From NCBI RefSeq assembly GCF_004765815.2, contig NZ_SBIS02000007.1, forward strand, positions 558,001-622,000: a stretch of 64,000 nt of DNA. Direction: 5' to 3'. A program made the position numbers and the translations under genes. Shown in pieces: positions 34,072-45,981 of the stretch (its first letter is position 1; each line of letters starts with the position of its first letter). The DNA is from Halorussus salinus (GTDB lineage: Archaea > Halobacteriota > Halobacteria > Halobacteriales > Haladaptataceae). Under the pieces are notes generated by a model, which did not search any database, was not told where the DNA came from, and worked only from the letters and a program-made list of their open reading frames with translations.

Positions 34072-34482
34072 TTAGACGCGAGAGGTATGCGGACGAGTTG
34101 TCGCGGTATGGGTGAAATTGAACGTCTTACCCGTCTCGACCGCAGTTGCTACGATGTGGTTCGAGCGAGACGAAAATTTGCGGAACTCGCTGGGACGAAG
34201 CGGAATCAGGTCGAGTGTCGGATACTCGTCGTAGTTCCAATCCCAGTCCCAGTGGTAGCGCCGGGCGTGTACGTCGTCTTCCTCAAAATCCGGGCTTACG
34301 ACGACTACGTCCACATCGCTAGACGGCGTCGGGTCGCCACGAGCATACGACCCAAATACGACTACGGTGGTCGGATTGATTCCGTTTTGATGACCGATGC
34401 GGACAACCTCCTGAGCAACTTCTTCGGCAGAGGGAAGAGTCTCCCGCGGATTATCTGGACCGCGGTCCACATCGGTACTCAT
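34072..34482 (-). CDS. MNT-type nucleotidyltransferase (antitoxin of HEPN/MNT pair)
   Basis: The 136-residue protein has the minimal nucleotidyltransferase signature VVVFGSYARGDPTPSSDVDVVVV (GS then DxD) and a third acidic position in TLDLIPL. In HEPN/MNT toxin-antitoxin systems the MNT protein neutralises HEPN, in studied cases by AMPylating it. Its ATG overlaps the HEPN stop by three bases (34480-34482 against 34479-34481). The active-site residues are intact, so modification activity is plausible. Confidence 0.83.
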   Translation of the reverse strand: MSTDVDRGPDNPRETLPSAEEVAQEVVRIGHQNGINPTTVVVFGSYARGDPTPSSDVDVVVVSPDFEEDDVHARRYHWDWDWNYDEYPTLDLIPLRPSEFRKFSSRSNHIVATAVETGKTFNFTHTATTRPHTSRV

Positions 34483-34832
34483 TTGAAATACTGTTGGTCA
34501 GCCCAATTCTTTAGCTCTTCGGTCGCTCGAATCGCATCTTTCGGAGACGTGTTCCGAGCGTAATCCAAGTCATCCGGGTATCGACGGTCATAAACTGAAT
34601 ATAAATATGAAAGGAGCTGACGTTTTTCTTTGGGAAATCGAGGAACATCTTGAGCGAGTTGGATAGTGTTATGTATCTCGTCTGGAACGCCACCACGCTT
34701 GACTATAATTGCTTTCAGTAGCGATTCGACAGCCAGATGGCACTCCTTCAATTTTTTCTGTGGTTGTGTGTTATCTCGTGCCGCTCGAAGGTCGCGCTCG
34801 TGTTTATCGAGCCACTCTTGGACCGAAGCCAT
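34479..34832 (-). CDS. HEPN-domain protein (toxin of HEPN/MNT pair)
   Basis: The 117-residue all-helical protein matches the HEPN fold: KKLKECHLAVESLLKAIIVK is the standard helix pairing segment, followed by a PDEIHNTIQLAQ helix and YDRRYPDDLDYARNT. The classical R-x4-6-H RNase motif is not obvious here; R83/R84 followed by Y85 and Y91 may correspond to a variant. It leads the two-gene operon with the MNT protein. Base composition around the gene is lower in GC than its flanks. Confidence 0.8.
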   Translation of the reverse strand: MASVQEWLDKHERDLRAARDNTQPQKKLKECHLAVESLLKAIIVKRGGVPDEIHNTIQLAQDVPRFPKEKRQLLSYLYSVYDRRYPDDLDYARNTSPKDAIRATEELKNWADQQYFK

Positions 34833-37667: not shown

Positions 37668-38867
37668 ATGGTCGGGACTGGGGTCGTGACGTTGGTAATC
37701 GCAGCTATCGCCAGTCTGTTCATGGCGTGGGCCATCGGCGCGGGGTCGTCCGGCTCGACTCCCTTCGCGCCCGCGGTCGGCGCGAACGCAATCTCGGTGA
37801 TGCGGGCCGGGTTCTTCGTCGGTCTCCTCGGCTTCGGAGGAGCCGTCTTACAGGGCGCGAACGTCTCGGAAGCGGTCGGCACGGAACTCATCGGCGGCGT
37901 CCAGTTGACCGCCATCGCGGCGACGACCGGCTTGTTGGTCGCCGCGGTGCTAGTCGCCATCGGCGTGTTCACCGGCTACCCAATCGCCACCGCCTTCACC
38001 GTCACGGGAGCCATCGTCGGCGTCGGTCTGGCGATGGGCGGCGACCCGGCGTGGGCGAAGTACCGCCAGATTTCGGCGCTGTGGGTGCTGACGCCCTTCG
38101 TCGGGAGTTCCATCGCCTACACCACTGCGAAGCTCCTGCGCTCGGAGCGCACGTCGGAGGAGGTCGTCATTCCCCTCCTCGGGGCGCTCGTCGGTCTCAT
38201 CGTCGCCAACGTGAAGTTCGTCGTCCTCGGCCCGTCGGACGTGAGCCAGTCCATCGCCGAGACCGCGGGCGACGCACTGGCGCTTCCGGCGACGGCGGGC
38301 GTCGAGACGGGCACGGTCGTCGTCTCGCTGGCGATAGCTGGCTTCGTCGCCGGACTGCTAGCGTGGGACGTACGCCGGAATCTGGCGGCCGGACAGCGCC
38401 ACTTCCTGCTCGCGCTCGGGAGCCTCGTCGCCTTCTCGGCGGGCGGGTCGCAGGTCGGCCTCGCCATCGGCCCGCTGGTGCCCCTGCTTGACCCATTCGA
38501 GATTCCGCTCGTGCCGGTGCTGGTCGGTGGCGGCCTCGGCCTGCTGGCCGGGTCGTGGACCGGCGCTCCTCGGATGATAAAGGCGCTGGCGCAGGACTAC
38601 TCGGCACTCGGCCCCCGCAGGTCCATCGCGGCGCTCATCCCCTCGTTCGCCATCGCCCAAATCGCGGTGTTCTTCGGCATCCCGGTCTCGTTCAACGAAA
38701 TCATCGTCAGCGCCATCGTCGGGAGCGGGTACGCGGCCGCCGACGGCGACGGCGGTGGCGTGAGCAAGGAGAAGATGGGCTACACCGTGCTGGCGTGGCT
38801 GGCGTCGCTCGTCCTCGCTATCGGGGTCGGGTACGGCGCGTTCGCGGCGATAGAGATATTCTTCTAG
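37668..38867 (+). CDS. PiT-family inorganic phosphate transporter (third copy)
   Basis: The 399-residue membrane protein is a more distant PiT homologue: WAIGAGSSGSTPFAPAVGAN (about 22-41) and FSAGGSQVGLAIGPLVPLLD (about 255-274) are the paired PiT signatures, and LGPRRSIAALIPSFAIAQ marks the loop before the final helices. A box CTATTTTATCG lies 25 bp before the ATG, typical of a leaderless gene. It is not adjacent to the other two PiT genes and is less similar to them than they are to each other. Confidence 0.83.
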   Translation: MVGTGVVTLVIAAIASLFMAWAIGAGSSGSTPFAPAVGANAISVMRAGFFVGLLGFGGAVLQGANVSEAVGTELIGGVQLTAIAATTGLLVAAVLVAIGVFTGYPIATAFTVTGAIVGVGLAMGGDPAWAKYRQISALWVLTPFVGSSIAYTTAKLLRSERTSEEVVIPLLGALVGLIVANVKFVVLGPSDVSQSIAETAGDALALPATAGVETGTVVVSLAIAGFVAGLLAWDVRRNLAAGQRHFLLALGSLVAFSAGGSQVGLAIGPLVPLLDPFEIPLVPVLVGGGLGLLAGSWTGAPRMIKALAQDYSALGPRRSIAALIPSFAIAQIAVFFGIPVSFNEIIVSAIVGSGYAAADGDGGGVSKEKMGYTVLAWLASLVLAIGVGYGAFAAIEIFF

Positions 38868-39037
38868 TATATAATTGATTCAAGATTGTCTTCTCATTAG
38901 CCAGTATTATTTTCAATTAGTATGACAGTAGTAGAGTTTTTTGGCTTTGAAACAATACTATTTTTATACTATATGAATTTATTAGTAATTCATATATAGA
39001 AACATTTTTATTATTTCCTCGCGTATCAATATACGCA
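38868..39037. promoter_or_regulatory. AT-rich intergenic region with promoter of exported-protein gene
   Basis: Strongly AT-rich, in sharp contrast to the preceding gene. ACATTTTTATTATTTCC (39002-39018) supplies a TATA region. GCGTAT-CAAT-ATACGC at 39021-39036 is a perfect 6-bp inverted repeat ending one base before the ATG, placed where the transcription start should be. GAATT/AATTC flank 38974-38990. Confidence 0.55.
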
Positions 39038-39847
39038 ATGGAAAACGATAAAATGAATAGAAGAAGTTTCGTGGAATACGCAGGAATCGCTACCACCGGC
39101 CTATCGGCGATCTCAGGACTTGGTTCAGCGAAAGGTAATAATCAAAGTAATATATATGAACAATCGCTGTTTCTACGTAAGAAAAATAACTGGTCGGTCC
39201 ATACTTGGCGAAAATACCTTTTGAAAAGGGGTGTTAATGTCAAACTGAAGGATAGAACGGTGGATTTACCAGCACCAGCAAAGAAAGAAGATGAAGTCTC
39301 GTCTGAGTGGTTAACGCGGGATAAACTTACCATAGCCGTATCGCACAGTTACGGTACAGGTATGGACTATCCACGTTTTGATGTTGACTGGGAATTCAAA
39401 GTCTGTGATGGGCACTGGGCAGAGAAACCGTTCGACCTCATTGACATCAAGTGGGAAGGCCCAGAGTATGACCGGCAAAAATCGCCATACTACGGGAAGT
39501 ACGCAAGCGAAGTTTCTAACGAGGAGTCTGAAGGCCTAAACGGATGTGTCTGTGAATACAACGACGCTCAACATAGCCTAGATCATTATTACGACAACGG
39601 AGACTGCTACTCCTTCGGTAGTTTCTTCGGTACTCCACTTTCGGCCGAAAAGAACAGTGTTTGTGATCGGCAAATTGAGGCTAACTACTACCACACGTGG
39701 CCTAGCCAAAGTTATAGCATCGGTTGGACAGTTGGGGCCCCAGTAATTTCATTCTCCAGTTCCAAAAATAAGTACGTCGCTGAGACTCTTACCAAGGAGT
39801 GCGAGATGGATGAGGGCGAAAAGGTATATACGTTCAGCAAGGCGTAA
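39038..39847 (+). CDS. Tat-exported protein of unknown function in low-GC island
   Basis: The 269-residue protein begins MENDKMNRRSFVEYAGIATT, a Tat signal with RR followed by a modest hydrophobic stretch and GLGSAKG as a likely cleavage area. There is no lipobox. The mature part contains six or more cysteines (in KVCDGHW, NGCVCEYND, GDCYSFG, SVCDRQ and TKECEMD), which outside the cell could form disulfides. It is rich in Tyr, Trp, Lys and Asn, and the codons are AT-rich, unlike the rest of the window. No family recognised. Foreign origin is likely. Confidence 0.7.
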   Translation: MENDKMNRRSFVEYAGIATTGLSAISGLGSAKGNNQSNIYEQSLFLRKKNNWSVHTWRKYLLKRGVNVKLKDRTVDLPAPAKKEDEVSSEWLTRDKLTIAVSHSYGTGMDYPRFDVDWEFKVCDGHWAEKPFDLIDIKWEGPEYDRQKSPYYGKYASEVSNEESEGLNGCVCEYNDAQHSLDHYYDNGDCYSFGSFFGTPLSAEKNSVCDRQIEANYYHTWPSQSYSIGWTVGAPVISFSSSKNKYVAETLTKECEMDEGEKVYTFSKA

Positions 39848-39906
39848 CAACTAGAATAAACGCAACATTTTTATTTAGAGAGTCTAAAGACGAAGTACTC
39901 CGTTGT

Positions 39907-40407
39907 ATGAATCGTAGAAGTTTGATGGATAAACTTGCGGCAGGAGCGACGACAATTTTGCTCTCGGGTTGTAATAGATCAATAAGAGTGTCAGCTACTA
40001 ACGTAAGAGAATTACGAGCCGATACTAATCACTCAATAATAGATAATGAATCAGAGTTACAGAACAACTGGGATACGAACTCTTTACTCATAACTAAAGA
40101 AGAAGATATGAATAGGTTCAAACAAAATATCTCTCAAGCGGTAAGTGACTGGCGACCAGTAGAATTTTCAAGACAATTCGTCTCTCTTATTTCTGTCGTA
40201 GTCCCTGCCAAGAATACGCTAGTACCGAAAAAAATTGAACTTCAAGAAGATAGATGCTATTACAAGCTCCACATAGACGAAAATAAATCAACTGACCCTG
40301 ACTTGCCTGACCCATATGTATTTAATATAGTCAATTTGTGGAATTTAAACGGGCATAGAACGCCAACAAGAATATCGGTCAACATCAACGAGAAACACAG
40401 TCAATAA
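39907..40407 (+). CDS. Tat lipoprotein of unknown function in low-GC island
   Basis: The 166-residue protein starts MNRRSLMDKLAAGATTILLS and has a lipobox LLSGC (Cys near 22), so it should be a Tat-exported lipoprotein. The mature part is rich in Asn, Ser, Lys and Arg; one stretch, DWRPVEFSRQFVSLISVVVP, looks like a buried strand pair. Its promoter (AACATTTTTATTT, 39865-39877) nearly matches that of the preceding gene, so the two are probably controlled together. No known family. Codon use is AT-rich like the neighbour. Confidence 0.68.
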   Translation: MNRRSLMDKLAAGATTILLSGCNRSIRVSATNVRELRADTNHSIIDNESELQNNWDTNSLLITKEEDMNRFKQNISQAVSDWRPVEFSRQFVSLISVVVPAKNTLVPKKIELQEDRCYYKLHIDENKSTDPDLPDPYVFNIVNLWNLNGHRTPTRISVNINEKHSQ

Positions 40408-40471
40408 AAAATATATTTCTGGATGTATTCTCAAACTATGCTTCATCATAGGTAATCTGAAATCGACCTGT

Positions 40472-41878
40472 TCAGTTACTTCCCGTCTCGACGCCCTCTT
40501 CCAGTTCTTCCGCGCCGTCCTCACTCTCGGCGCGCTCCTCGCGGTCGAGTTTCGTCACCCGCGCCTTCATGATGCGGGTGTTCTCGACCTGTTCGACGTG
40601 GAGGCGCACGCCGTCGTAGGTGATGTCCTCGCCCTCCTCGACCAGTCGGCCCGCGCGGTTGAAGATGAACCCGGCGATGGTCTCGAACTCCTCGCCCTCG
40701 GGGAGGTCGATGTCCAGCGCCTCGTTGACCTCGTCGATGTTGAGTTCGCCCCGGACGATGATGGTCTCGTCGTCCACGTACTCGATGGGTTCCTCCTCTT
40801 CGCCTTCGAGGATGTCGCCGACGATCTCCTCGACCATGTCCTCCATCGTGACGAGTCCCTCGGTAGTCCCGAACTCGTCGATGACGATGACCATCTGCAT
40901 CCGGTTCTCGCGCATCTCGGTCAGGAGTTCGTCCACGTTCTTGCTCTCGGGGACGTGGAGGGTCGGCTGAATCACGTCCTCCAGTTCGAGTTCGTCGTGT
41001 TCGCCGTAGGTATCCTCTCGGACCAGATCGCGGATGTGGATGACGCCGATGACGTTGTCGAGGCTCCCCTCGTAGACCGGGACGCGCTCGTGGCCGCTCT
41101 GGACCAGCGTCTCGATGGCCTCCTCGACGCTCGCGGTCTTGGGTACCGCGGTCATGTCGAGCCGAGGAGTCATCACTTCCTTCGCGATGGTGTTGTTGAA
41201 CCGGAAGATGCGCTGGAGCATCTCGCGCTCGTCCTCCTCGATGACGCCCTCGCGCTCGCCGGTCTCGATCATGTCCTGAATCTCGTCGCGGGTAACGTAG
41301 GAGGTCTCGATGGCCGAGCGACCGCCCGTAACCTTGTTGACGAGACGGGTCAGGTAGTCGAACAGGACGACCAGCGGGAGGAGAACGTACTCCGAAATCT
41401 TCAGCGGGCGGGCGATGCGGAGTGCCCACGATTCGGTGTTCTCGACGGCGTAGGACTTCGGTGCGCTCTCGCCGAACAGCAGGACCAGCGAGGTGATTCC
41501 GAACGTCGAGATGAGGACGGCCGCACCCGCGCTCTCGACGTAGATGCCGACGAGCGCGGTCGCTATCGAGGACATCGCGATGTTGACGAGGTTGTTACCG
41601 ACCAGAATCGTCACCAGCAGGCGATGGGGGTCGGATTTGAGTTGGGCGACCGCCTCCGCGCCGGGGACGCCGTCTTCCATGAGCGCGTCGACGCGGTGCT
41701 TGGCGAGCGAGAACATAGCGATTTCCGAAGAGGAGAAAAAGCCCGAGAGGGCGATGAGGACCACGATAGCCAAGGCTCCAAGAACCGTAATCTGCCCTTC
41801 GTTGAGGCCGACACCGAGGACGTTTGCCAGCGGAACGGCACCGACAGACGAGGCAGTGAGTATCGGAAGTGACACCAT
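40472..41878 (-). CDS. CNNM/HlyC-CorC-type membrane protein with CBS pair
   Basis: The 468-residue protein has an N-terminal DUF21/CNNM membrane domain of about four helices (GFFSSSEIAMFSLAKHRVDA, then LVTILVGNNLVNIAMSS), two CBS domains (MTPRLDMTAVPKTASVEEAI and the following ELEDVIQPTLHVPESKNVDE), and a C-terminal CorC/HlyC transporter-associated domain (EFETIAGFIFNRAGRLVEEG). Such proteins are linked to magnesium or other cation efflux. Single gene, divergent from the redox pair at 41992. Confidence 0.9.
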   Translation of the reverse strand: MVSLPILTASSVGAVPLANVLGVGLNEGQITVLGALAIVVLIALSGFFSSSEIAMFSLAKHRVDALMEDGVPGAEAVAQLKSDPHRLLVTILVGNNLVNIAMSSIATALVGIYVESAGAAVLISTFGITSLVLLFGESAPKSYAVENTESWALRIARPLKISEYVLLPLVVLFDYLTRLVNKVTGGRSAIETSYVTRDEIQDMIETGEREGVIEEDEREMLQRIFRFNNTIAKEVMTPRLDMTAVPKTASVEEAIETLVQSGHERVPVYEGSLDNVIGVIHIRDLVREDTYGEHDELELEDVIQPTLHVPESKNVDELLTEMRENRMQMVIVIDEFGTTEGLVTMEDMVEEIVGDILEGEEEEPIEYVDDETIIVRGELNIDEVNEALDIDLPEGEEFETIAGFIFNRAGRLVEEGEDITYDGVRLHVEQVENTRIMKARVTKLDREERAESEDGAEELEEGVETGSN

Positions 41879-43033: not shown

Positions 43034-43747
43034 ATGAACTTCGACAGGCGGAGCTTCCTGAAAGCGAGTAGTGCGGCAATCGTCGGCGGCGCGGCCCTCA
43101 GCGGGTCGGCCTCGGCGAGTCACGTCGGGGTCAGCGACCCGGTCATCTCGACGACCGACCTGAACATCCGCGAACAACCCAGTACCAGCGCGTCGGTCAA
43201 GGCCAGCGCGGACCAGTGGACCGGCGGTCACGTCGTGGACGGTCCCCGGAGCGCGGACGGCTACACGTGGTGGAAGGTCTCGTTCAACCAAGACAGCGAC
43301 AACGGCCGCATCACCGGTTGGGTCGCGGAGGGCGACGCGTGGCTCGACGGCCCGACCGACTTCTCGTACCCCTGCTGGGGCTTCATCACCCAGACTTCCG
43401 CTCAAGACGGCGGTGCCATCGACATCGGCAACGACTACGGGACGCCGCTGGTCGCCGCGCGCGGGGGGACCGCTACCACCGGCTACGGCGACCGGTGTGG
43501 CTACTACGTCTCCATCGACCACGGCGGCGGCTGGACCAGCATCTACTGCCACATGCAGGAACGGTACGTCTCGAACGGCCAGACGGTCTCGGAAGGCCAG
43601 CAAATCGGCGAGATGGGTAGCACCGGCAACTCGACCGGGCCGCACGTTCACTTCGCCATCCGATACAACGGTGCGAACCAGAACATCCCCGGCTTCGACG
43701 GACAGGACCTCATCGCCGGGTCGGGCATCCCGAAGAGCTATCTGTAG
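43034..43747 (+). CDS. Tat-exported SH3b-M23 peptidase-like protein, copy 1
   Basis: The 237-residue protein has a Tat signal (NFDRRSFLKASSAAIVGGAA), an SH3b-like domain at about 37-108 (LNIREQPSTSA, GYTWWKVSF, GRITGWVAEG) and an M23/LytM-like domain. The catalytic His of the YCHM segment and the HxH of GPHVHFAIRYNG are present. The first zinc ligand is not: the usual HxxxD reads GGAID, with Gly for His. Archaea here lack murein, so the target, if any, is unknown. A very AT-rich promoter (about 42985-43010) precedes it. The paralogue follows at 43852. Confidence 0.85.
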   Translation: MNFDRRSFLKASSAAIVGGAALSGSASASHVGVSDPVISTTDLNIREQPSTSASVKASADQWTGGHVVDGPRSADGYTWWKVSFNQDSDNGRITGWVAEGDAWLDGPTDFSYPCWGFITQTSAQDGGAIDIGNDYGTPLVAARGGTATTGYGDRCGYYVSIDHGGGWTSIYCHMQERYVSNGQTVSEGQQIGEMGSTGNSTGPHVHFAIRYNGANQNIPGFDGQDLIAGSGIPKSYL

Positions 43748-43851: not shown

Positions 43852-44595
43852 ATGAAAGACGACAAAACCAGCAGACGCAGCTTCCTGAAAGCGAGCGGCG
43901 CAACGATTGCGGGCGCGGCGGCCCTCTCGGGGTCCGCGGCCGCGGCGAAAGACTACAGTTACCTGACGCCGGTGTTCACGACTTCGGACCTCAGCGTCCG
44001 GGAGAATCCGACGACGAGCGCGGCACGAAAGGCCGTCGCCAGCAATCGAACCGGCGGACGCGTGTTCGAGGGTCCCGAGACGGCGGACGGCTACAACTGG
44101 TGGAAGGTCCAGTTCTCCGGCGACGCGAACAACGGCTCGGTCACGGGTTGGGTCGCCGAAAACTGGCTCTCGTCGGCCAACTTCGCCTGTCCGATGACCG
44201 GTACCGTCACCTCGACGTACTGGGACACCCGCGACGGCGGCAGTCGCTACCACCGCGCGGTGGACTTCGCGGACGGCGGCGGCACGCCCATCCACGCGGC
44301 CGCGGGCGGCACCACCGAACACCGCTACGACGAAGGCGGCTACGGCAACTGGCTCCTCATCTACCACGGCAACGGCTGGAAGACCGGCTACGGACACCTC
44401 AGTTCGTTCAACGTCGGCGACGGCGTGTCGGTCAACCGCGGCGACGTGGTGGCCTACGAGGGCGACACCGGTGCTGGCACCGGCCCGCACCTCGACTTCC
44501 AAGTGTGGGACCCGAACTGGGAGAAGAAGCGTTCGTACTACGACGACGGCGACGCGGCCGTGCAGGGCACCGGCGTCCCGCGCGCATTCTTCTGA
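43852..44595 (+). CDS. Tat-exported SH3b-M23 peptidase-like protein, copy 2
   Basis: The 247-residue paralogue of the preceding gene has Tat signal KTSRRSFLKASGATIAGAAA, SH3b-like repeats (LSVRENPTTSAARKAV, NWWKVQFSGD, GSVTGWVAENWL) and an M23 domain with the first zinc motif intact (YHRAVDFA, HxxxD) and GYGHLSSF. The final HxH motif reads GPHLDF, with Asp in place of the zinc-binding His. Asp can sometimes replace His as ligand, so activity is open. Its own AT-rich promoter lies at 43795-43825. Confidence 0.85.
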   Translation: MKDDKTSRRSFLKASGATIAGAAALSGSAAAAKDYSYLTPVFTTSDLSVRENPTTSAARKAVASNRTGGRVFEGPETADGYNWWKVQFSGDANNGSVTGWVAENWLSSANFACPMTGTVTSTYWDTRDGGSRYHRAVDFADGGGTPIHAAAGGTTEHRYDEGGYGNWLLIYHGNGWKTGYGHLSSFNVGDGVSVNRGDVVAYEGDTGAGTGPHLDFQVWDPNWEKKRSYYDDGDAAVQGTGVPRAFF

Positions 44596-45253: not shown

Positions 45254-45287
45254 GTAATACTTTTTTGGTATTACGACGGAGTATTAC
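45254..45287. promoter_or_regulatory. Triple GTATTAC operator before AbrB-VapC locus
   Basis: GTAATAC at 45254-45260 and GTATTAC at 45268-45274 form a perfect inverted pair around TTTTTTG, and a further GTATTAC sits at 45281-45287, two bases before the ATG. The spacings of 14 and 13 bp put the sites over the TATA and transcription start, as expected for autorepression by an AbrB-type antitoxin. Confidence 0.65.
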
Positions 45288-45289
45288 TT

Positions 45290-45508
45290 ATGAGTCGAGT
45301 GACGAAGAAGGGCCAAGTAACGATCCCGAAGGAAGTGAGAGAGAACCTCGGGATTCGGCCCGGCGACGAAGTGGAGTTCGTCGAAACCGAGAGTGGCTAT
45401 CAAATCAGGAAGGAAGCCGAAGAGAATCCCTTCGAGAAGTGGCGTGGAGTCGCCGACACCGAAAAAAGCGTCACGGAGCGGATGACCGAGTTACGGGGCG
45501 AACGGTGA
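45290..45508 (+). CDS. AbrB-type antitoxin (VapB-like)
   Basis: The 72-residue protein is almost only an AbrB swapped hairpin: MSRVTKKGQVTIPKEVRENL, then GIRPGDEVEFVETESGYQI. The short C-terminal tail (NPFEKWRGVADTEKSVTERM) would contact the toxin. A VapB role is supported by overlap of its TGA with the GTG start of a PIN-domain gene. An elaborate repeated operator immediately upstream suggests autoregulation. Confidence 0.88.
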   Translation: MSRVTKKGQVTIPKEVRENLGIRPGDEVEFVETESGYQIRKEAEENPFEKWRGVADTEKSVTERMTELRGER

Positions 45509-45981
45509 AAACCGTCGTAGACACGAGTGCAGTAATTGCACTCATGAACTCCGACGAAAAGCACAACGAACGAGCGGCGGATTTACTCATGCAGGCGTAC
45601 TCTGAGGGTGCGCTAATCGTTGCACCCGTGACGTACACCGAATTGAGTGCAGACTCGTACTTCCAGACCGCATCCGACCTCGACGCTTTTCTCGAAGACA
45701 CCGGAATTCGTGTCGAAGAGCCAAACACGGATGCATTGTTCAGGGCAGGTGACGCGTTCCAAACGTATCTCGACCGGCGAGGTGAAGAACTCCAGTGTAG
45801 CGAGTGTGGTACAGAACGCGTCTTCGACTGTCCGAACTGCAATGCAAACGTCACCGCACGTCAGCACGTCCCTGCCGACTTTCTAATCGGCGCACAAGCA
45901 GAGACGCAAGCCGACCAGTTGCTGACGTTTGACGGTGGATTCTTCGAGACGTACTTTACCCTCGACATCCGCTCGTTCTGA
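45505..45981 (+). CDS. PIN-domain toxin (VapC-like) with zinc-ribbon insert
   Basis: From the GTG at 45505 the product has 158 residues. PIN acidic residues are present: D6 (VVDTSAVIALM), E46 (TYTELSAD), D125 (PADFLIGAQAE) and D143 (LLTFDGGF). Between the second and third, a loop contains C98xxC101 and C109xxC112 (QCSECGTERVFDCPNC), a likely zinc knuckle not found in ordinary VapC proteins. It could steer RNA recognition. A longer in-frame reading from 45265 would start inside the antitoxin and is rejected. The stop is one base from that of the convergent Cas4-like gene. Confidence 0.86.
   Translation: MKTVVDTSAVIALMNSDEKHNERAADLLMQAYSEGALIVAPVTYTELSADSYFQTASDLDAFLEDTGIRVEEPNTDALFRAGDAFQTYLDRRGEELQCSECGTERVFDCPNCNANVTARQHVPADFLIGAQAETQADQLLTFDGGFFETYFTLDIRSF

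What the first reader, a model, noticed from the sequence alone, without database searches (positions are those of the whole stretch)
38868..40471. Low-GC island with two unknown Tat-exported proteins under matching promoters
The DNA changes abruptly to AT-rich, and both genes use AT-rich codons. Each gene has AACATTTTTATT about 30 bp before its start. One product is cysteine-rich and soluble, the other a lipoprotein, as if one were a secreted effector and the other an anchored partner or immunity protein. A GCGTAT/ATACGC palindrome sits at the start site of the first. Neither has a recognised family. A secreted antimicrobial (halocin-like) system is possible.
Basis: partly seen in the sequence, partly recalled or inferred. 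Interest (0 to 1): 0.7.

Follow-up and report, generated by a model that had tools for sequence, protein, structure and literature searches.

The report
Haloarchaeal secreted protein with swappable partner
An AT-rich insert in a salt-loving archaeon carries an undescribed secreted protein next to a membrane-anchored lipoprotein, and relatives of the secreted protein across haloarchaea repeatedly sit beside one of several unrelated envelope proteins, which looks like a toxin-and-immunity pair but has not been tested.

Summary
The island is real. 38868-40471 is 39.7% GC in a 64% GC window and is inserted between two convergent genes that are neighbours without it in 15 other Halorussus-group genomes. 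It holds two Tat-exported proteins with no Pfam, NCBIfam or PHROG family: A (269 aa, soluble) and B (166 aa, lipoprotein). The shared AACATTTTTATT occurs exactly twice in the window, probably as an archaeal BRE/TATA box.

A belongs to an undescribed, divergent family found only in Halobacteriales in the genomes searched. At 16 of 45 other A loci a small Tat lipoprotein lies within 125 bp (1.7 expected, p about 5e-11); four more carry B-type anchored proteins and three a DUF5518 membrane protein. At least three unrelated partner types, in every orientation, replace one another across the A tree. Several A genes are broken.

Best explanation: A is a secreted antagonist and the envelope partner gives immunity; killing is not shown. 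A's AlphaFold model matches alpha-hemolysin/leukocidin pore-forming toxins best in Foldseek (E 1.6e-6, TM about 0.3, VIA Z 9.0), but there is no sequence match and no evident stem. The pairing claim is strong, the effector-immunity reading moderate, pore formation speculative.

The parts
38868..40471 (.). AT-rich island (1,604 bp, 39.7% GC) inserted between two convergent genes
   Evidence: Composition; flanking genes adjacent without it in 15 other genomes of the genus
39038..39847 (+). Gene A: Tat-exported soluble protein, 269 aa, predicted beta-sandwich after two N-terminal helices
   Evidence: ORF; family alignment; AlphaFold model pLDDT 79.6, pTM 0.76
39038..39133 (+). Tat signal peptide of A (NRRSFVE, hydrophobic stretch, GSAKG)
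   Evidence: Read from the sequence; both arginines conserved in at least 90% of the family
39907..40407 (+). Gene B: Tat lipoprotein, 166 aa (B1 family), proposed immunity or anchored partner
   Evidence: ORF; B1 family next to A at 7 other loci; model pLDDT 83.4, no fold match
39907..39972 (+). Tat signal plus lipobox of B (MNRRS...LLSGC, Cys22)
   Evidence: Read from the sequence; most but not all B1 relatives keep the Cys
39001..39012 (+). AACATTTTTATT upstream of A (probable BRE/TATA)
   Evidence: Two exact copies in the window, 0 expected
39864..39875 (+). AACATTTTTATT upstream of B (probable BRE/TATA)
39021..39036 (.). Inverted repeat GCGTAT-CAAT-ATACGC before the start of A; possible operator, possibly chance
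   Evidence: About 7% chance per 60 bp
37668..38867 (+). Left flank: PHO4 phosphate transporter (core genome)
   Evidence: Pfam E 6e-44; conserved in relatives
40472..41878 (-). Right flank: CNNM/CBS/CorC_HlyC transporter-like protein (core genome)
   Evidence: Pfam; clear ortholog at 82-93% identity in 16 other genomes of the genus

Best explanation
A and B form a two-gene antagonism cassette. A is exported folded through Tat and released; it acts on the envelope of competing haloarchaea. B is a lipoprotein on the producer's own surface that blocks A there, so it is the immunity protein. In relatives the same role is taken by an unrelated short Tat lipoprotein (B2) or a small DUF5518 membrane protein. 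Shown: the two genes, their export signals, the insertion, the family, and the repeated adjacency with several unrelated envelope partners. Inferred: that A harms other cells, that B protects, and that the target is the cell envelope. Speculative: that A works by forming a pore like alpha-hemolysin/leukocidin proteins.
For: Adjacency of A with a small Tat lipoprotein at 16 of 45 other loci, expected 1.7, Poisson p 5e-11; 12 of 41 after collapsing close relatives, p 1e-7. Four further loci have a B1 relative without a detected lipobox (L083, L027, L101, L092) and three have DUF5518. Tandem, divergent and convergent arrangements all occur, so adjacency is not just an inherited operon. Partner type is clustered on the A tree yet needs 13 changes (shuffled mean 20.8, 0 of 200 as low): repeated partner replacement. 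Patchy distribution, insertion with an empty site in relatives, GC below flanks in 33 of 37 A genes, several broken A genes, tandem A copies (L024) and several A paralogs in this genome fit fast-turnover conflict genes. B1 also occurs alone, as orphan immunity genes do. The A model's best structural neighbours are pore-forming toxins.
Against: No activity, secretion or protection data. No sequence similarity to any toxin, halocin or immunity family. About 20 A loci have no obvious partner. B1 orphans beside housekeeping genes could mean that B1 has another role. The leukocidin match has TM about 0.3 and rmsd 14-25, and pilin domains score VIA Z 8.2; no amphipathic stem is apparent in the family.
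Confidence: 0.48

Rival explanations
1. A is a non-toxic secreted beta-sandwich protein (adhesin, matrix or ligand-binding protein) that is held at the cell surface by its lipoprotein or membrane partner, for example for attachment or nutrient capture.
For: Adhesin and pilin beta-sandwich domains align at VIA Z 7.2-8.2 with lower rmsd, 2.9-3.6; partner swapping would also suit a generic anchor; no toxin sequence signature.
Against: Foldseek ranks leukocidins first, and all 50 listed hits are of that class; patchy presence, broken copies and orphan B genes are more typical of conflict genes than of structural components.
Confidence: 0.27
2. A is a pore-forming protein of the alpha-hemolysin/leukocidin structural class; the envelope partner stops assembly or insertion in the producer. 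(A more specific form of the best explanation.)
For: Foldseek E 1.6e-6, probability 1.00, over nearly the whole length; VIA Z 9.0, rmsd 4.3 over 151 residues; viral proteins reach only E 5e-3 for the same model; a lipoprotein or membrane partner is where immunity to a membrane-active protein would act.
Against: TM about 0.3; no Pfam Leukocidin hit in 34 members; the segment 140-195, where a stem would lie, shows no conserved alternating hydrophobicity.
Confidence: 0.17
3. A and B were co-acquired by chance and have unrelated functions.
For: Each gene has its own promoter-like motif; A and B1 also occur separately.
Against: The adjacency statistic across genomes and the recurrence with independent partner families.
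Confidence: 0.08

Closest known systems
Halocins / archaeocins (HalH4, HalC8, HalS8)
   Same: Secreted proteins of haloarchaea; HalH4 and HalC8 are exported precursors activated by proteolysis (as summarised in PMC12893001)
   Different: No family match to a halocin model in NCBIfam or Pfam; adjacent separate envelope partner of several types; killing untested
HapP (HFX_0892) protease-activated antagonist precursor of Haloferax mediterranei (PMC12893001)
   Same: Secreted protein of similar size (mature 235 aa); activity lies in two N-terminal helices, and A too is predicted to start with two helices
   Different: Sequence not held; five short peptides deduced from printed primers are absent from A-family members; no partner gene is described
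Alpha-hemolysin / leukocidin beta-pore-forming toxins
   Same: Best Foldseek and VIA neighbours of the A model
   Different: No sequence similarity, TM about 0.3, no evident stem, archaeal Tat export, partnered with an envelope protein
Bacteriocin or polymorphic-toxin effector-immunity modules
   Same: Exported variable effector beside interchangeable small immunity proteins, orphan partner genes, broken copies
   Different: No known toxin domain, trafficking domain or immunity family; activity unproven
Thermococcales hypervariable Ig-domain module (PMC8416519, abstract only)
   Same: Archaeal locus with a variable protein and changing downstream genes, discussed in terms of conflict
   Different: Large Ig proteins in Thermococcales; no relation shown here

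Membership tests
Halocin / archaeocin | Secreted protein or peptide that inhibits other haloarchaea | not testable with these tools
   Only the Tat signal is seen; no assay possible
Halocin / archaeocin | Sequence match to a known halocin family | tested here: inconclusive
   No NCBIfam, Pfam or PHROG hit; halocins are mutually unrelated and not all are in these libraries
Effector-immunity two-gene module | Genetic linkage of an exported effector with a cognate small protein beyond chance | tested here: met
   16 of 45 loci against 1.7 expected, robust to collapsing relatives
Effector-immunity two-gene module | Partner diversity and exchange | tested here: met
   B1, B2 and DUF5518 partners; 13 changes on the tree
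Effector-immunity two-gene module | Partner neutralises effector | not testable with these tools
   Needs expression assays
Leukocidin / alpha-hemolysin superfamily (Pfam Leukocidin) | Sequence profile match | tested here: not met
   None of 34 A members matched it in Pfam at E 1; profile search of PDB sequences found none
Leukocidin / alpha-hemolysin superfamily (Pfam Leukocidin) | Beta-sandwich fold of the class | tested here: inconclusive
   Foldseek E 1.6e-6 but TM about 0.3; VIA Z 9.0 against 8.2 for pilins
Leukocidin / alpha-hemolysin superfamily (Pfam Leukocidin) | Amphipathic pre-stem hairpin that forms the barrel | tested here: inconclusive
   No conserved alternation in residues 140-195; family-averaged profile only, no per-residue structural alignment
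HapP-type precursor | Homology to HFX_0892 | tested here: inconclusive
   Gene not found in the collections by a printed primer sequence; primer-derived peptides absent from A family
DUF5518 (partner at three loci) | Pfam PF17647 above gathering score | tested here: met
   L100, L103, L082 partners: 42.9, 28.2, 32.9 bits against 27

The most novel reading that the evidence does not exclude
A large, previously unnamed haloarchaeal family of Tat-secreted membrane-attacking proteins with a leukocidin-like beta-sandwich, each paired with one of several interchangeable lipoprotein or membrane immunity proteins: an archaeal pore-forming weapon system with swappable immunity.
Probability: 0.17. Interest if true: 0.85.

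Novelty: new variant of a known kind. Interest (0 to 1): 0.62.

Why it matters
Haloarchaea are known to inhibit one another, yet few effectors and hardly any immunity genes are known at sequence level. A divergent effector family that can be recognised by profile, and whose neighbours supply candidate immunity proteins of several unrelated kinds, would make archaeal protein warfare directly testable in laboratory strains. If the leukocidin resemblance is real, it would place this toxin fold in archaea that lack animal hosts, which bears on where such proteins came from.

Tried and rejected
Viral origin: no match in viral contigs with A alone or in phage records; no significant viral fold match. 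Mobile-element boundary: the only direct repeat is the promoter motif, no terminal repeats or transposase in the island. A special shared regulator from AACATTTTTATT: no exact or near match upstream of other A genes (best 3 mismatches), so it is probably the local BRE/TATA. Cysteine-rich secreted peptide: cysteines not conserved. Fold of B: no match. HapP identity: primer sequence not found in GTDB contigs or 392 order genomes. The 74 of 392 genomes with an A1 profile hit include hits to the Tat signal alone and are not used as a prevalence figure. Profile growth also pulled in the two M23 proteins of the window by their Tat signal; they were excluded.

Full report
What was checked. The island at 38868-40471 has 39.7% GC in a window of 64.4%. 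It contains two ORFs on the + strand, A (39038-39847, 269 aa) and B (39907-40407, 166 aa). Third-position GC is 0.48 and 0.35, against 0.86-0.92 in neighbouring genes. Both proteins begin with a twin-arginine signal; B has a lipobox (LSGC). The 12-mer AACATTTTTATT occurs exactly twice in the window, 25 and 31 bp before the two start codons, and never in 100 shuffles. From general knowledge of haloarchaeal promoters (TATA box about 25 bp before the start of transcription, many leaderless genes) this is most likely the BRE/TATA element of each gene. It is not shared by homologs. The palindrome at 39021-39036 is real, but such a repeat is expected in about 7% of 60-bp stretches.

Where it sits. 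The window belongs to a 4.75-Mb genome, G000. A plasmid record of Halorussus aquaticus (NZ_CP100401) has the length of contig C2 of its genus-mate G004, so the genus is very likely Halorussus. The flanking genes encode a PHO4 phosphate transporter and a CNNM/CBS/CorC protein. In 15 other genomes of the genus these two genes are convergent neighbours with nothing, or a different small insert, between them: 11 gaps are 37-262 bp long, four hold 528-764 bp with other ORFs. The island is therefore a genome-specific insertion in a variable slot. No repeats or transposase mark its ends.

The A family. A has no Pfam, NCBIfam or PHROG match. Direct search found relatives at 21-34% identity in Halobacteriales; profile searches found many more, and none outside the order in a sample of the phylum. 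This genome has five matches at E 1e-5 or better, the two weakest at 1.5e-19 and 2e-18. Three relatives lie on plasmids. The family shares the twin arginines, an invariant Asp (D133) and a mostly conserved His-Thr-Trp stretch near residue 219. Cysteines vary. A genes are lower in GC than their flanks by 10 points on average; 33 of 37 are more than 3 points lower. Several are split or stopped (L003/L018, L084, L085, L097, L109).

The partner. Around 46 A loci, including the window, small Tat lipoproteins lie next to A far more often than chance allows. Outside the window 16 of 45 loci have one within 125 bp; from their density further away (10 in 420 kb) 1.7 would be expected, p about 5e-11. 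After merging close relatives it is 12 of 41, p about 1e-7. The background density comes from the same loci with the same regular-expression criteria, so it is a fair but simple control. The lipoproteins fall into at least two families. B1, the window's type, is next to A at seven other loci, some of them anchored without a clear lipobox (L083, L027, L101, L092, L094, L099, L105). B2 is shorter (L016, L021, L022, L024, L081, L084, L087, L089, L093, L096, L097, L109); the grouping of its most divergent members rests on weak alignments. At L082, L100 and L103 the neighbour is a DUF5518 membrane protein. Arrangements are tandem, divergent and convergent. On the A tree partner types are clustered but change repeatedly: 13 changes against 20.8 after shuffling (a quick tree with long branches). 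About 20 A loci have no recognised partner. B1 also occurs without A beside housekeeping genes.

Structure. With 34 homologs A folds to a confident model (pLDDT 79.6, pTM 0.76): two helices followed by a beta-sandwich. Foldseek against the PDB lists alpha-hemolysin, leukocidin, NetF, beta-toxin and related pore-forming toxins in all 50 shown rows, E from 1.6e-6, probability 0.96-1.00, but TM is 0.23-0.34 and rmsd 14-25. VIA-align gives Z up to 9.0 with rmsd 4.3 over 151 residues, only slightly above pilin and adhesin domains at 7.2-8.2, and the tool's own note says Z 7-8 is common by chance. Viral structures reach only E 5e-3. No member matches the Leukocidin family by sequence. The stretch between the strands at 133-139 and 191-203 is hydrophilic and shows no conserved alternation. 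The resemblance is a lead, not a membership. B also folds confidently (pLDDT 83.4) but matches nothing.

Reading. An exported, fast-diverging, patchily distributed and often broken protein that keeps an envelope partner at its side, while the identity of that partner changes, is what one expects of a secreted antagonist with immunity proteins. A generic surface protein with exchangeable anchors would look partly similar, and this is the main rival. The pairing itself I hold at about 0.85, the effector-immunity function at about 0.5, and pore formation at about 0.17. No activity has been demonstrated.

Against the literature. Haloarchaeal antagonists known at sequence level include halocins, lanthipeptides (in Halorussus), contractile injection systems, peptidoglycan hydrolases and the HapP precursor (PMC12893001; PMC10105419, PMC11566945, PMC12352652 by abstract or passages). 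Text searches for a leukocidin-like or pore-forming protein of haloarchaea, and for DUF5518, found nothing relevant, within an open-access library only. HapP is of similar size and its activity resides in two N-terminal helices, as A is predicted to have; its sequence could not be obtained, and primer-derived peptides do not occur in the A family.

Noticed in passing
43034-43747 and 43852-44595 (+): Two adjacent Tat-exported Peptidase_M23 proteins, one with a weak SH3_3 domain: candidate peptidoglycan hydrolases in an archaeon without peptidoglycan (compare PMC12352652).
   Followed up: partly
34072-34832 (-): Nucleotidyltransferase (MNT-like) and HEPN genes side by side with lower GC: a probable HEPN-MNT toxin-antitoxin pair.
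   Followed up: partly
L126, L127, L130, L131 (gap between the PHO4 and CNNM genes): The same intergenic slot holds different small ORFs, partly with membrane-protein-like sequences, in other genomes of the genus, as if it were a variable insertion site.
   Followed up: partly
L024:5360-7458: Two A genes in tandem followed by a B2-type lipoprotein.
   Followed up: partly
45265-45981 (+): PIN-domain protein.
   Followed up: no
L111-L117 and L026: B1 lipoproteins without an A neighbour, beside housekeeping genes.
   Followed up: partly
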